A stretch of DNA of 64,000 bases from Erythrobasidium yunnanense (Eukaryota > Basidiomycota > Cystobasidiomycetes > Erythrobasidiales > Erythrobasidiaceae). Below the pieces are notes generated by a model, which did not search any database, was not told where the DNA came from, and saw only the letters and a program-made list of their open reading frames with translations. Shown here one piece after another: positions 6,765 through 24,736 of this stretch. The stretch lies in NCBI GenBank assembly GCA_001600175.1, contig BCJC01000004.1:1736001-1800000 (forward strand). Direction: 5' to 3'. The position numbers and the translations under genes are program-made. Position 1 is the stretch's first letter. Every line of letters starts with the position of its first letter.

Positions 6765-7909
6765 TTAGAAGATGGGGAGATCGAAGCCGTAATCTGTTAA
6801 CGACAAAGCAAAGAACTGTTAGCGAGGCTCAAATAAGCGGATGAGCAGGAGTATGCTTACTTGGCGGGGAGTTGAAGCGCAATCCTTGATTCAGTGCAGC
6901 AATCTTCTTGATCTCGTCCTCGGTGAGGTCGAAGGAGCAGACGTCCAAGTTTTGAGCCAGGCGGTTTGAGTCGTTTGACTTGGGGATCACTGCGATGCCA
7001 CGCTGTGTAGCCCATCTGAGGAGTACCTGTGCAGGTGTCTTGCTGTGCTTATCGGCGATAGCCTTGATTGTGTCGTGCTGGAGGAGAGGAGGGGTGTTTT
7101 TGGCATTCTGCTTTTCCACGCCCATCTCGATGTAGGACATGGGTCCGAACGACGAGTATGCAGTGATAGTGATACCATGTCTCTTTGCCAAGTTGACGAG
7201 GTCCTCCTGGGTGAGGTATGGGTGGTGTTCGATCTGCAAGGTAGCAGGCATGATGTTTGCGTATCTCGAGATATCCCAAACGAGACCGGCGTTGTAGTTT
7301 GATACACCGATACTCTTTGCGTAACCCTTTTGTACGAGCTTCTCCATCTCTGCCCATGTCTTGTGCAGAGGGATTTTGGCAGGTGCGTGCACCTTTCCGC
7401 TCTTATCGGTGAAGGTGGGAGGGTACTGCACCTTGGGATCTACGTATTCGAGAGGAAGAGGGAAGTGGATGATGTACAAGTCAAAGTAGTCCAATCCCCA
7501 TAGATCGAGAGAGATCTTGCACCCCTCCTCGGCGTGCTCGCCGTGGAAGTTGCTCCATAGCTTGGAGACGAGGAAGAGGTCTTCTCGCTTTACGATCCCC
7601 TCCTTGATGGCTCGTGCAACACCCTGTCCAGCTTCCTTCTCGTTGCCGTAGTCTGGCGAAGGAAGTCAGCTTTTTTGCGTCCTTCCTGCAAAGATATGAA
7701 ATGGCCTACCGCATGCTCCGTCGAAGAGACGGTATCCAGCCTTGATGGCGTTGTATACCGTGTCTGCGCAGTTCTCTGTGACTTTCCAGAGTCCAAAGCC
7801 GACGAGAGGCATCTTGTTTGACAATCCCGCTGTCAGTGCCACCTCTGGCCGTTCATCATGGAATGCTCACCTCATGTCCGCTGTTGAGCTTTACTGTAGG
7901 TGCGACCAT
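6765..7909 (-). CDS. XYL1: NAD(P)H-dependent D-xylose reductase (AKR2 family)
   Basis: A cytosolic aldo-keto reductase that reduces D-xylose (and related aldoses) to xylitol, the first step of the fungal xylose pathway. Exons 7909-7871, 7812-7710, 7652-6861 and 6793-6765 give 320 residues, the family's usual length. The catalytic tetrad is visible at about D44, Y49 (FDGACDYGNE), K78 (LVSKLW) and H110 (YIIHFP). The cofactor loop [10 protein letters not shown] (about K272, N274, R278) is the KSN-xxx-R pattern of xylose reductases that bind NADPH and often NADH. The short last exon supplies the typical end NYGFDLPIF. It is transcribed away from xylitol dehydrogenase across a 233-base shared promoter, the strongest context evidence for the xylose assignment. 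A glycerol or arabinose reductase is the main alternative. Confidence 0.9.
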
Positions 7910-8142
7910 GTTGTTGATATTTGATTGATAGGTGGTGGTTGGAGTGGAGAAGAGAGATTGTTCAAGAGAATCCTTCTCCTCTTCTATCCTTCGATGATTC
8001 TCCCCGTTCCCTCTCTGATATCCTCCGGCGGCGTCGGGAGATATGGATAATCCTAGAATCCTCTTGGAAGGACAAAGTCGGTTTCCAAGGGAAACAATCT
8101 CTTTGATTCTGTATCTACTATCTACTTGATTGCACAACAACC
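7910..8142. promoter_or_regulatory. Shared divergent promoter of xylose reductase and xylitol dehydrogenase
   Basis: The 233 bases between the two start codons must hold both promoters. They contain CCGGCGGCGTCGG (about 8030), three CGG triplets in one orientation, and a perfect inverted repeat GTTTCC-AAG-GGAAAC at 8081-8095. CGG triplets are the usual half-sites of Zn2Cys6 regulators, two of which are encoded in this cluster. That they bind here is inference. Confidence 0.6.
8081..8095. promoter_or_regulatory. 6-bp inverted repeat with 3-base spacer in the divergent promoter
   Basis: GTTTCC and GGAAAC flank AAG, a dyad that could be a site for a dimeric regulator. It sits 48 bases before the xylitol dehydrogenase start, possibly within the transcribed leader. 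Confidence 0.35.
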
Positions 8143-22047: not shown

Positions 22048-22245
22048 GATGGATGATGAAGCAGCAGCAGTAGGATCTTGTCGTAGGTTTCTTGATGGTG
22101 TTGCCTCAAGCAGATCCCCTCTCGACCTCTTCACGTGGAAAGGACTTCTGTTTTACTTCGGCCCATTCTTTGAAGTCCCGGGATCCTCTGAATTTCTCCC
22201 TCAGCTCGCTGAGATACATTTGAGGGATAAGAAAATTGCCTTACG
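22048..22245. promoter_or_regulatory. Shared divergent promoter of GH1 and regulator 2
   Basis: The 198 bases between the start codons of GH1 (minus) and the second Zn2Cys6 regulator (plus) include a CCCGGG palindrome (about 22180) and GATCCTC. A regulator beside its target with a shared promoter is common in fungal clusters; the control is inferred. Confidence 0.5.
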
Positions 22246-24736
22246 ATGCCCGCAAGCTCCAGCGAGAACGGATCTGTAAAGAAGAGCCCAGCACCTCTGA
22301 ATCCTACATGCGATCTTTGCAGAAAACGCAAGGTGAAGACATCTTGGTCCCAGCCTGCTCGGAAGGTGGCTCTAACCTCGACAGTGTCTGTATAGATCAA
22401 ATGCGTAAACGATCCTAGCCCTATTCTACCAGGTTCCAAGTGTGAAGGATGCCGGTGAGGCGTGGGGTCTCTTGACGAAAACTATACCATGCTGATCGAT
22501 TATGACTACACTTATTAGCAAGCTAGACGTGGATTGTAAATACGAGGTTCGCGAACCCGCCTGCCTGCAATCTACCCGCACCAAGAACTGATGATTTCCC
22601 CTACGTAGTACGTGAGGCAGAAGCCTGGCAGAAAGAGCCAGTATGCAGCCGGAGGAGTTGGAAAAGCTACGGCGACCCAAGCCTCCATCTCCCTCGTCGA
22701 GCTCCAGAATACCTATCCCTATCCTCCCGTCTCTTCACTATCCACCCTACGTACACCTACCGCCTCTGTAACACAACTTGTCGATTCGCAAGCAAGCTCG
22801 CATCGACCTTTCTCGCTCGAGAACGAGTCGAACCACACGTCGGCCTTGCTAGACCCAGTGGCGAGTACAAGCGCTCAGCCGTACAGTCTGGACACTCTCA
22901 CCAAGCCCTCCGCTGGTCCTCTCGGAGCGTCACAGGAAGGCGACAACGACTTTGGGTATAGCTGGTTGGATTCGATACTCGAAGGAAACGCAGATTGGCT
23001 TTCCACCGACCCAGCTTCCCAGAACGGGCAAGGGCTCCCCGACTCCTTCTTTGAAGAGTTCGAGTTTCTCACACAACAGCAGCCCAAAGCGAATGACCAG
23101 ATACAACTATTAGCACAAGAATCTCCAGAATTCGGCTCTGCGAGGTCACTGCCGGAGACCACGCCTCCAGTCGCAGCATTGGCTACCAAGATCGAGCGAA
23201 AGACCGACAAGGGCCCGTCGTGGGACCACATTACGCACTTTGTGTCTCTATGGCTGCAATACCTCTATCCTTTACTGCCCTTGGTGCATCGGCCCAGATT
23301 CGCTGAGGATCTGGCCATGCGCAGGGATCTTCGCGATCCCGACTTCAAGGCCCTGCTGCTCAGTATCGGTGAGTGCCGGAGCAGAAAAGAAAGCAGGCAA
23401 GTTATGCTGAGCATCTGTATCAGTGGCATACGTTATCTCACAGCTCCCGACAACCCGTCTGGTCAATGAGCACTATTCTATCGAAGGCCTCAAGAGCATG
23501 CAGAGGTCCTGCCATCGAGTCTCGCGTACGCTTCAGCGCTCATACTATGGCACACCCAACCTCACGCAGATCACGACCATCATATTGTGTGGTGCCTTCG
23601 TTCCAGGAAAGGCTTGGACGCTAAAACCTCTTCTGCAGCGATTCCTTCTATCTTTTGAGCGTGGGTTTGGACCACACTGCCGGAGCAAGATTAGGACAAG
23701 CTTTCCAGCTTGCATACTCGTGCGGTCTGCACAGTGATGCCAAGACGGAAGCCTTGGGCTTGAATGCCATCGAGGTCCAGCTTCGAAGGAGGGTATTTTG
23801 GCAGCTGTTCGCAGCTGATAAGTAAGCACGCTTCACTCATATGAGGAGGTTATACGTCCTGACCTTGTGCCTTCGCCAGGACTCGAGCTATTGGAGGCCT
23901 GCCTATGCTGCTCTGCGAGTTCCAAGGAACGTGCTCTCTGCCAGAACCTATAGACGACGAGTTCATCACTTCGCAAGGCTATTTCTCTCAACCTAAAGAA
24001 AGGATATCACACATCGTCGGCTTTATCGCTGTCACGAGGGTTTTCCGCCTTCTATACGAAGTCTTCTTCCATCATCGCTGCATACTCTCTGGAACTGGGA
24101 GCGTTACGCTCGAATGGGTAGCTGCAACGGAGAGCAGACTACATCTTATCCTGGCGGAGCTCCCTCCTGCAATACAAGAGCCTATGAACGTTCTTGGCGA
24201 AGACAACCGAAGAATCTATGCTATGCAGCGAGCGAACATCCTTGTCACCACGGCTATTGTCAAGTTTGCATTGGTAAGTAGCAATAGTACAGCAGTCTCA
24301 TCTGAAAATACTGATCCAGACCGTACAGTATGACCTCAAGGCTTCGTTGCATGCAGACGAAGCTATCCTCAAGCGGGAGAAGGAGACCGTAGCACGAGAG
24401 ATGCACAGTCTGCTTATGCACGTCTCGATAGACGACATCGCTTCGAACGGAGAGTCTGCTCGCGGCAAGGTGTTCCATATCATCAACGCGCTGTGCGTAC
24501 AGCTGCCTGCGAACGACCTGAACTTCGAACTCGTCCGAGACTGGTATAATATGGTGCGTCATACCAATATCGATATACTGTATGAACAGTGATGCTGATG
24601 TTACATGACTTGTCTGCAGTTCCTCGCCATCTCTTTCATTCAGATGCCTGTCCCAGCGCCTGGAACCGCTGGGCTGGAGAGCAGGGCACCGAGTCCTCCT
24701 ATGCAAGTGCAAGAGGCAGCGCAAGACACCATGTAG
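22246..24736 (+). CDS. Zn2Cys6 transcription factor 2 of the sugar cluster
   Basis: A binuclear zinc-cluster regulator of 671 residues, paralogous to the one at 12001-14511. Exons are 22246-22332, 22396-22454, 22519-22546 (28 bases), 22609-23368, 23424-23586, 23639-23821, 23880-24273, 24329-24553 and 24620-24736. The zinc cluster CDLCRKRKIKC, twelve residues, CEGCRKLDVDC is spread over the first three exons. The homology region includes CHRVSRTLQRSYYG, LRRRVFWQLFAADK and MHVSIDDIASNGES. The first intron falls after CRKRK as in regulator 1, and the exon 23639-23821 has the same 183-base length as its counterpart there. It carries two introns regulator 1 lacks (within the zinc cluster and near the C-terminus). 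Divergent from GH1. Target genes unknown; control of the cluster is inference. Confidence 0.9.

What the first reader, a model, noticed from the sequence alone, without database searches (positions are those of the whole stretch)
6765..24736. Candidate gene cluster for import and intracellular breakdown of xylo- and cello-oligosaccharides
Within 18 kb lie xylose reductase, xylitol dehydrogenase, an intracellular GH43, a lactose/cellodextrin-type permease, an intracellular GH1 beta-glucosidase and two paralogous Zn2Cys6 regulators. In Neurospora the same parts (cellodextrin transporters CDT-1/CDT-2, GH1-1, GH43-2, xylose reductase and xylitol dehydrogenase) form the import-then-hydrolyse route but are scattered in the genome. 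Physical clustering with dedicated regulators in a basidiomycete yeast would be unusual. A cyclin gene and a small unknown gene interrupt it.
Basis: partly seen in the sequence, partly recalled or inferred. Interest (0 to 1): 0.85.

Follow-up and report, generated by a model that had tools for sequence, protein, structure and literature searches.

The report
Yeast gene cluster for plant pentoses
Seven sugar-use genes and two regulator genes lie within 28 kb of one contig of a probable basidiomycete yeast, among them the only close copies the genome search found of four sugar enzymes; together they likely let the cell take in short plant-wall sugar chains and break them down inside, and the two regulators are predicted to switch the set on.

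Summary
The cluster is larger: left of the window it continues with a GH51 arabinofuranosidase divergent from a second sugar transporter. The search found no close copy of GH1, GH51, XR or XDH elsewhere in the 20.9-Mb genome, and TF1's closest relative is TF2, so co-location in 28 kb is far beyond chance.

CCGGCGG lies upstream of GH51/transporter, XR/XDH, GH43 and permease. The longer CCGGCGGCRGGT has five exact matches genome-wide: three upstream of GH51/transporter, GH43 and an unlinked L-arabinitol-dehydrogenase-like gene, two inside unrelated predicted exons. This supports a pentose (arabinoxylan) regulon.

The cello-oligosaccharide part is weaker: the permease's substrate is unproven and the GH1/TF2 promoter lacks the site. 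That the regulators bind the site is inference. Conservation in relatives and co-expression could not be tested. Sugar-use clusters are known in ascomycete yeasts, so this is a new variant. Its value is a concrete regulator-and-site hypothesis for pentose control in basidiomycetes, where XlnR/AraR orthologues are reported missing.

The parts
1..1429 (+). Second sugar transporter (SP family), 3' part; the gene model starts 713 bases left of the window (C4:1735288) and diverges from a GH51 alpha-L-arabinofuranosidase (C4 about 1732745-1734999, minus strand), both counted as part of the cluster
   Evidence: gene model on L013 joined to the window; Pfam Sugar_tr 326 bits and Alpha-L-AF_C 118 bits; GH51 model and PDB matches
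6765..7909 (-). Xylose reductase (aldo-keto reductase), 320 aa, exons 7871-7909, 7710-7812, 6861-7652, 6765-6793
   Evidence: model; Pfam; best PDB matches aldose/xylose reductases, 350-362 bits; no close copy in the genome, other matches 25-41% over parts, one 39-residue piece 50%
7910..8142 (.). 233-bp divergent promoter of XR/XDH with CCGGCGG at 8025-8031
8143..9863 (+). Xylitol dehydrogenase (polyol dehydrogenase family), 387 aa, 9 exons
   Evidence: model; Pfam; PDB: ketose reductase 285 bits, xylitol dehydrogenase 277, sorbitol dehydrogenases 268-271, LAD 221; other genome matches at most 46-56% over parts, in LAD-like and sorbitol-dehydrogenase-like genes
12001..14511 (-). TF1, Zn2Cys6 regulator, 707 aa; Cys spacing C-x2-C-x6-C-x12-C-x2-C-x6-C; CCGGCGG (minus strand) in its first intron at 14359-14365
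15719..16900 (-). GH43 beta-xylosidase/arabinofuranosidase-like enzyme, 328 aa, no obvious signal peptide, exons 16786-16900, 16696-16722, 15719-16563
   Evidence: PDB 5glk 436 bits, 4mlg 366 bits, 6xn0 361 bits (run on an earlier 349-aa model); closest protein 89% identical, metagenomic (same earlier model)
17191..17203 (+). CCGGCGGCAGGTA, candidate regulatory site 291 bp upstream of the GH43 start
17638..19446 (-). Sugar-porter permease, 543 aa; closest named relatives in Tremellomycetes (up to 69%)
   Evidence: model; Pfam Sugar_tr 282 bits; homologues; best other genome match 35% over about 307 residues, shorter pieces up to 51%
20025..20031 (+). CCGGCGG, 579 bp upstream of the permease start
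   Evidence: outside the 400-bp window used
20260..22047 (-). GH1 beta-glucosidase, 480 aa, no obvious signal peptide; exons 21928-22047, 21770-21877, 21535-21704, 21272-21482, 21106-21216, 20691-21048, 20260-20624
   Evidence: PDB 4mdo 586 bits (run on an earlier 483-aa model); the only GH1 gene found in the genome
22246..24736 (+). TF2, Zn2Cys6 regulator, 667 aa, same Cys spacing as TF1; diverges from GH1 (198-bp shared promoter without CCGGCGG)
10049..11371 (+). Cyclin gene, interrupts the cluster, not assigned to the pathway
15063..15521 (-). Small gene without Pfam match, interrupts the cluster; reading frame tentative

Best explanation
This is a 28-kb cluster that gathers GH51, a sugar transporter, xylose reductase, xylitol dehydrogenase, GH43, a permease, GH1 and two paralogous Zn2Cys6 regulators; it likely works by importing arabino-, xylo- and probably gluco-oligosaccharides that enzymes predicted to be cytoplasmic would cut to monosaccharides, the pentoses then being predicted to go through reduction and oxidation to xylulose. 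Shown here: the genes, their families, no close copy of GH1, GH51, XR or XDH found elsewhere in the genome, and a CCGGCGG element upstream of four of six cluster promoter regions. A longer form, CCGGCGGCRGGT, occurs five times in the genome: two in this cluster, one upstream of an unlinked gene closest to L-arabinitol 4-dehydrogenase (LAD), and two inside unrelated predicted exons. Inferred: cytoplasmic location (no obvious signal peptide); the permease takes up oligosaccharides; GH51 and GH43 release arabinose and xylose; XR makes L-arabinitol and xylitol, the unlinked LAD and an unidentified L-xylulose reductase complete the arabinose branch, and XDH ends both branches at D-xylulose. Also inferred: TF1 and/or TF2 bind the element and induce the set, LAD included. 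The glucose branch through GH1 is the least certain.
For: Gene identities. One GH1 gene found, one GH51, no close second XR or XDH; TF1's nearest relative is TF2. Co-location null 1e-8 (four loci) to 3e-14 (six loci). Element: CCGGCGG in 3 of the 4 cluster promoters scored in the first scan, then in the GH51/transporter promoter and upstream of LAD, neither used in that scan's choice. Within 400 bp upstream: 5 of 8 cluster/pentose promoters (two of the five were used in discovery) against 0 of 85 other predicted genes, p 1e-6. Promoters not used in discovery: 4 of 13, p 2e-4; with two further GH3 genes added, 4 of 15 against 0 of 83, p 4e-4. CCGGCGGCRGGT: 5 matches in 20.9 Mb against 2 for the reversed control; 3 of 5 upstream of pathway genes, 2 of 5 in unrelated predicted exons; 2 of 5 inside the 28 kb has p 2e-5. 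GH43, GH1 and GH51 N-termini are less hydrophobic than those of GH10, two GH43 and one GH3 of the same genome. The same kinds of parts make a working import-and-hydrolyse route in Neurospora (PMC4338637, passages and section 5 part 1).
Against: The element is absent from the GH1/TF2 and TF1 upstream regions, from the two FGGY-kinase genes fetched (of three places found; their identity as xylulokinases is not established) and from the single GH10, so it does not mark the whole pathway. In the first scan it was the best of 1617 7-mers at nominal 3e-4, not significant alone; the longer consensus was read from three of its own hits. Two of the four held-out promoters with the element belong to genes of uncertain relevance (a sorbitol-dehydrogenase-like gene and a secreted GH3); without counting them it is 2 of 13 against 0 of 83, p 0.017. 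The comparison genes are mostly neighbours of CAZyme, transporter or dehydrogenase genes, because 19 of the 20 stretches were fetched for such genes. At least five other genes lie inside the 28 kb. The 120 best relatives listed for GH1 and for GH43 show no named Tremellomycete, although Tremellales do carry both families (PMC7147457, passages), so conservation is neither shown nor excluded. No expression data.
Confidence: 0.55

Rival explanations
1. Two neighbouring modules rather than one: a pentose module (GH51, transporter, XR, XDH, GH43, likely TF1) marked by CCGGCGG, and a separate beta-glucoside module (permease, GH1, TF2) with its own inducer such as cellobiose, lactose or a plant glycoside.
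For: The GH1/TF2 divergent promoter lacks the element and the permease copy is 579 bp upstream; beta-glucosidase genes pair with sugar transporters in clusters of their own in Scheffersomyces stipitis (PMC2784038, passages).
Against: TF2 is TF1's closest relative in the genome; the permease upstream region does hold one CCGGCGG; GH43 sits between TF1 and the permease.
Confidence: 0.27
2. The CCGGCGG element is read by another Zn2Cys6 factor encoded elsewhere, and TF1/TF2 control other genes; the cluster is co-regulated but not by its own regulators.
For: Neither TF promoter holds the element (one copy lies in a TF1 intron); binding by TF1/TF2 rests on linkage alone.
Against: Both regulators sit inside the cluster and TF1 has no close relative outside it; CGG-type sites are what Zn2Cys6 proteins usually bind (general knowledge; PMC12997857 passage on CGG triplets).
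Confidence: 0.13
3. Neutral neighbourhood: single-copy genes that lie together by descent or chance, with no common regulation.
For: Cyclin, a DNA polymerase (IMS domain), a GrpB-domain gene and two genes without Pfam match lie among them; no conservation test was possible.
Against: Placement null 1e-8 or smaller for four or more unique loci and the shared element.
Confidence: 0.05

Closest known systems
Neurospora crassa xylodextrin/cellodextrin route (CDT-2, GH43-2, GH43-7, GH1-1, XR, XDH; PMC4338637, passages and section 5 part 1)
   Same: The same kinds of step: oligosaccharide import, intracellular GH43 and GH1, then XR and XDH
   Different: The word cluster does not occur in that paper's main text; here the genes are linked, GH51 is added and regulators are linked. 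Orthology of the GH43 to GH43-2 was not tested
Scheffersomyces stipitis functional gene clusters (BGL-HXT/SUT, LAC, GAL; PMC2784038, passages)
   Same: Transporter and glycosidase physically grouped, often divergent, with similar induction patterns
   Different: Small ascomycete clusters; none in the part of the table seen joins XR/XDH, GH51 and regulators
Candida intermedia GALLAC cluster (PMC11497787, passages)
   Same: A sugar cluster with its own regulator (LAC9), an aldose reductase XYL1 and Lac9 motifs in three cluster promoters
   Different: Galactose/lactose pathway, ascomycete, no xylan glycosidase, one regulator
[not shown]
   Same: Beta-glucosidase, sugar transporter, xylosidase/arabinosidase and another transporter in one up-regulated stretch
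   Different: Ascomycete, about 23 genes by locus tags; no XR/XDH or regulator pair named in the passage read
XlnR/AraR regulators of pentose catabolism in Aspergillus (PMC4651341, PMC12538316: starts of abstracts in the listing; PMC9781776: passages)
   Same: Two regulators that together cover D-xylose and L-arabinose genes
   Different: Orthologues reported missing in the basidiomycetes of PMC9781776; TF1/TF2 orthology was not tested here

Membership tests
Catabolic gene cluster with a dedicated regulator | Functionally linked, non-homologous genes closer together than chance | tested here: met
Catabolic gene cluster with a dedicated regulator | Shared cis-element in the cluster promoters | tested here: met
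   CCGGCGG in 4 of 6 promoter regions; absent from GH1/TF2 and TF1; 0 of 85 other predicted genes
Catabolic gene cluster with a dedicated regulator | Co-expression and loss of induction without the regulator | not testable with these tools
   no transcript data
Catabolic gene cluster with a dedicated regulator | Conserved neighbourhood in relatives | not testable with these tools
   no named fungal genomes with context available; homologue lists give no order
Fungal cellodextrin/lactose permease (CDT, LAC12 type) | Orthology to CDT-1/CDT-2/LAC12 | tested here: inconclusive
   of 120 listed relatives 4 are named lactose permease (3 Vanrija, 1 Leucoagaricus), many hexose transporter; no characterised CDT in the list; nearest solved structure STP10, 112 bits
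GH43 beta-xylosidase/arabinofuranosidase (5glk, 4mlg type) | Similarity to solved members over nearly the whole length, no signal peptide | tested here: met
   (436 bits); activity itself not tested
GH1 beta-glucosidase | Full-length similarity including the NEP and TENG motifs (motif roles recalled) | tested here: met
   alignment to 4mdo
Xylose reductase | Closer to fungal XRs than to other aldo-keto reductases | tested here: met
   350-362 bits for aldose/xylose reductases of this kind, 240 bits for the next family
Xylitol dehydrogenase | Closer to XDH than to other polyol dehydrogenases | tested here: inconclusive
   ketose reductase 285, XDH 277, sorbitol dehydrogenases 271 and 268, LAD 221 bits; LAD is disfavoured, the exact polyol is not settled
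L-arabinitol 4-dehydrogenase (unlinked gene L029:4376-5867) | Closest to Neurospora LAD | tested here: met
   318 bits against 257 for the next (sorbitol dehydrogenase)
XlnR/AraR | Orthology | not tested
Ace3/Roc1 regulators of basidiomycetes | Clade membership; Roc1 binding motif | not tested
   Roc1 paper not held; passages of PMC12997857 give no motif

The most novel reading that the evidence does not exclude
TF1 and TF2 are the basidiomycete answer to XlnR/AraR: a duplicated Zn2Cys6 pair that arose independently, sits inside the genes it controls, divides the xylose and arabinose signals between its two members, and drives both the cluster and unlinked pentose genes such as LAD through CCGGCGGCRGGT.
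Probability: 0.25. Interest if true: 0.85.

Novelty: new variant of a known kind. Interest (0 to 1): 0.64.

Why it matters
[quoted passage not shown] This locus offers two candidate regulators, a 12-base candidate site with only five matches in the genome, and a ready list of targets, one of them on another contig, so the question can be tested with a few deletions and one binding assay. It also supplies a natural gene set for import and use of arabinoxylan-oligosaccharides, of interest for engineering yeasts on plant biomass.

Tried and rejected
First gene finder merged neighbouring genes; replaced by region-limited and two-strand models (still merged some) and hand refinement from intron signals and homologues. 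Synteny in relatives through locus tags: the permease list gives Tremellomycete tags, but the 120 listed relatives of GH1 and of GH43 show no named Tremellomycete (names read by eye, many rows unnamed, thousands of lower hits not seen), so adjacency could not be read. Horizontal transfer of GH43: a tree of 52 rows (50 of the 120 listed relatives and two genes of this genome) put the cluster GH43 with metagenomic sequences among ascomycete lineages with unresolved branching, basidiomycete rows scattered, so no claim is made. Composition shows nothing foreign: GC 0.51-0.53 in the cluster, 0.48-0.54 elsewhere in the window. Other motifs: among spaced CGG dyads the best was CCG-N-CGG (nominal p 0.001), the same element. 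FGGY kinases and the single GH10 lack the element. Roc1 motif comparison failed because the paper is not held; a later search for the motif gave nothing that I could use in its listing. Searches for a printed cluster of this make-up listed 20 of 551, 15 of 22, 7 of 7, 12 of 63 and 11 of 11 papers; judged by title and start of abstract, none is about such a cluster in a basidiomycete yeast. Subscription papers are outside that library.
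Full report
WHAT IS THERE. The window is C4:1736001-1800000 of a 20.9-Mb genome in 10 contigs. The permease's closest named relatives are Kwoniella (up to 69%), Cryptotrichosporon, Naematelia, Naganishia and others (Kwoniella is a Tremellomycete), so the organism is probably a tremellomycete yeast; the species was not identified. Solved relatives: GH43 matches 5glk at 436 bits, GH1 matches 4mdo at 586 bits, XR matches aldose/xylose reductases at up to 362 bits. 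XDH matches a ketose reductase (285 bits), xylitol dehydrogenase (277) and sorbitol dehydrogenases (271, 268) ahead of L-arabinitol dehydrogenase (221), so its exact polyol is not settled. The permease has only distant solved relatives.

THE CLUSTER IS LARGER THAN REPORTED. Just left of the window lie a GH51 alpha-L-arabinofuranosidase (Pfam 118 bits; PDB arabinofuranosidases up to 361 bits) and, diverging from it, a second sugar transporter that runs into the window at 1-1429. Between this pair and XR lie a DNA-polymerase gene (IMS domain; a second model at 3369-4257 may be its end), a GrpB-domain gene and a gene without Pfam match. The cluster thus spans C4:1732745-1760736, 28 kb, with seven sugar-use genes (GH51, transporter, XR, XDH, GH43, permease, GH1) and two regulators (TF1, TF2). 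At least five other genes lie among them.

NOT CHANCE. The genome search found one GH1 gene (its 4 matches are pieces of one gene) and one GH51. No other gene comes close to XR (best others 38-41% over parts) or XDH (46-56% over parts). TF1's relatives in the genome are pieces of TF2 and one weak match; TF2 itself was not searched. GH43 has about five other genes and sugar transporters are many (183 first-look candidates, 9 scored), so those two families are not unique, though no other transporter exceeds 35% to the permease over a long stretch. Under uniform placement four unique loci fall within 28 kb with probability 1e-8 and six with 3e-14; the families were chosen after the fact, which these figures do not correct for.

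A SHARED ELEMENT. Comparing four cluster promoters, the best of 1617 7-mers was CCGGCGG, present in XR/XDH, GH43 and permease and not in GH1/TF2 or in TF1 (nominal p 3e-4, not significant alone). Two later observations were independent of that choice: it lies in the GH51/transporter promoter, and upstream of a gene on contig C1 whose best solved relative is Neurospora L-arabinitol 4-dehydrogenase, 318 bits against 257 for the next. GH51/transporter, GH43 and LAD share a longer form, CCGGCGGCRGGTW, the only three exact matches in the 271 kb held, with no one-mismatch match. Genome-wide CCGGCGGCRGGT has five matches against two for the reversed control: the three just named, and two inside predicted exons of unrelated genes. 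Within 400 bp upstream, CCGGCGG occurs in 5 of 8 cluster or pentose promoters and in 0 of 85 other predicted genes (Fisher p 1e-6). Among 13 promoters not used in discovery 4 have it (p 2e-4), namely GH51/transporter, LAD, a sorbitol-dehydrogenase-like gene and a secreted GH3. Adding the two GH3 genes first left out gives 4 of 15 against 0 of 83 (p 4e-4), and counting only GH51/transporter and LAD 2 of 13 against 0 of 83 (p 0.017). It is missing from GH1/TF2, TF1, both FGGY-kinase genes fetched (two of three places), the GH10 and six other GH43 or GH3 promoters of the 13. The permease copy, 579 bp upstream, does not count in that test. Limits: gene starts are predicted, the pathway set is mine, the other genes are mostly neighbours of CAZyme, transporter or dehydrogenase genes (19 of 20 fetched stretches), and the longer form was read from its own hits.

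HOW IT LIKELY WORKS. XR and XDH lie on both arms of the fungal pentose pathway (established knowledge): xylose to xylitol to xylulose, and arabinose to L-arabinitol, then through LAD and L-xylulose reductase to xylitol. Together with GH51 and GH43, and with LAD sharing the element, this points to use of arabinoxylan-oligosaccharides. GH43, GH1 and GH51 have weakly hydrophobic N-termini (maximum 0.40-1.05) compared with GH10, two GH43 and one GH3 elsewhere in the genome (1.49-2.45), so hydrolysis is predicted to be cytoplasmic after import, as in Neurospora (PMC4338637). The measure is crude: XR reaches 1.23, and a GH3 that looks intracellular reaches 1.62, inside the range of the secreted-looking set. 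The two regulators share domain order, cysteine spacing and one exon of equal length (183 bases), and are the natural candidates to bind the element; nothing here tests binding.

WHAT IS WEAK. The cello-oligosaccharide claim rests on GH1 and on a permease whose substrate cannot be read from sequence, and the GH1/TF2 promoter lacks the element. A two-module reading is the main rival. Conservation could not be tested: no annotated fungal genomes with gene order were available, and the 120 listed relatives of GH1 (named ones mostly Agaricomycetes) and of GH43 (named ones mostly ascomycetes) include no Tremellomycete by name, many rows being unnamed. This is not absence: Tremellales carry GH1 and GH43 (PMC7147457, passages).

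AGAINST WHAT IS KNOWN. Sugar clusters with transporter and glycosidase occur in S. stipitis (PMC2784038, passages); one with its own regulator and an aldose reductase in C. intermedia (PMC11497787, passages); an A. fumigatus stretch holds beta-glucosidase, transporters and a xylosidase/arabinosidase (PMC4469458, passages). Nine Tremellales strains tested in PMC7147457 carry enzymes of the classes GH1/GH3 and GH43/51/54 and all grew on xylan (passages). None of the papers listed is, by title and start of abstract, about this combination in a basidiomycete yeast; some searches listed only part of what they found. XlnR and AraR orthologues are reported missing in the basidiomycetes of PMC9781776 (passage). 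Hence a new variant of a known kind, with a testable answer to an open regulatory question.

Noticed in passing
L014 (C5:130001-140000), 2413-7469: A second pair of intracellular-looking glycosidases: a GH3 without an obvious signal peptide diverges from a 519-aa GH43 closest to BoGH43A and a beta-xylosidase (253 and 241 bits). It may correspond to the xylosyl-xylitol-cleaving GH43-7 of Neurospora; orthology not tested.
   Followed up: partly
L021:4166-5417 (C3:481k): A second, divergent GH43 that resembles the cluster enzyme (324-aa model), long branch in the tree; no CCGGCGG within 400 bp upstream.
   Followed up: partly
Contig C10 (57,881 bases): Permease-like matches occur as mirror pairs whose coordinates sum to 57,882 (14977/42905, 15449/42433), so the contig looks like one large inverted repeat: assembly artefact or a palindromic element.
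   Followed up: no
L027 and L028 (C8:1126k and C8:1099k): Similar gene pairs in opposite order (a transporter 34-35% like the cluster permease and a second protein), about 27 kb apart, probably an inverted duplication, with a possible Zn2Cys6-like gene beside one copy.
   Followed up: no
L030 (C5:1660001-1670000): A sorbitol-dehydrogenase-like gene with CCGGCGG 117 bp upstream sits by an enolase-superfamily-like protein and a short-chain dehydrogenase (my reading of the sequences), perhaps another sugar or sugar-acid locus.
   Followed up: partly
GH43 homologues P0023, P0063, P0084, P0090: Basidiomycete GH43 sequences (Fomes, Pleurotus, Paramarasmius, Flagelloscypha) are scattered among ascomycete ones in the tree, suggesting repeated transfer or contamination.
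   Followed up: no
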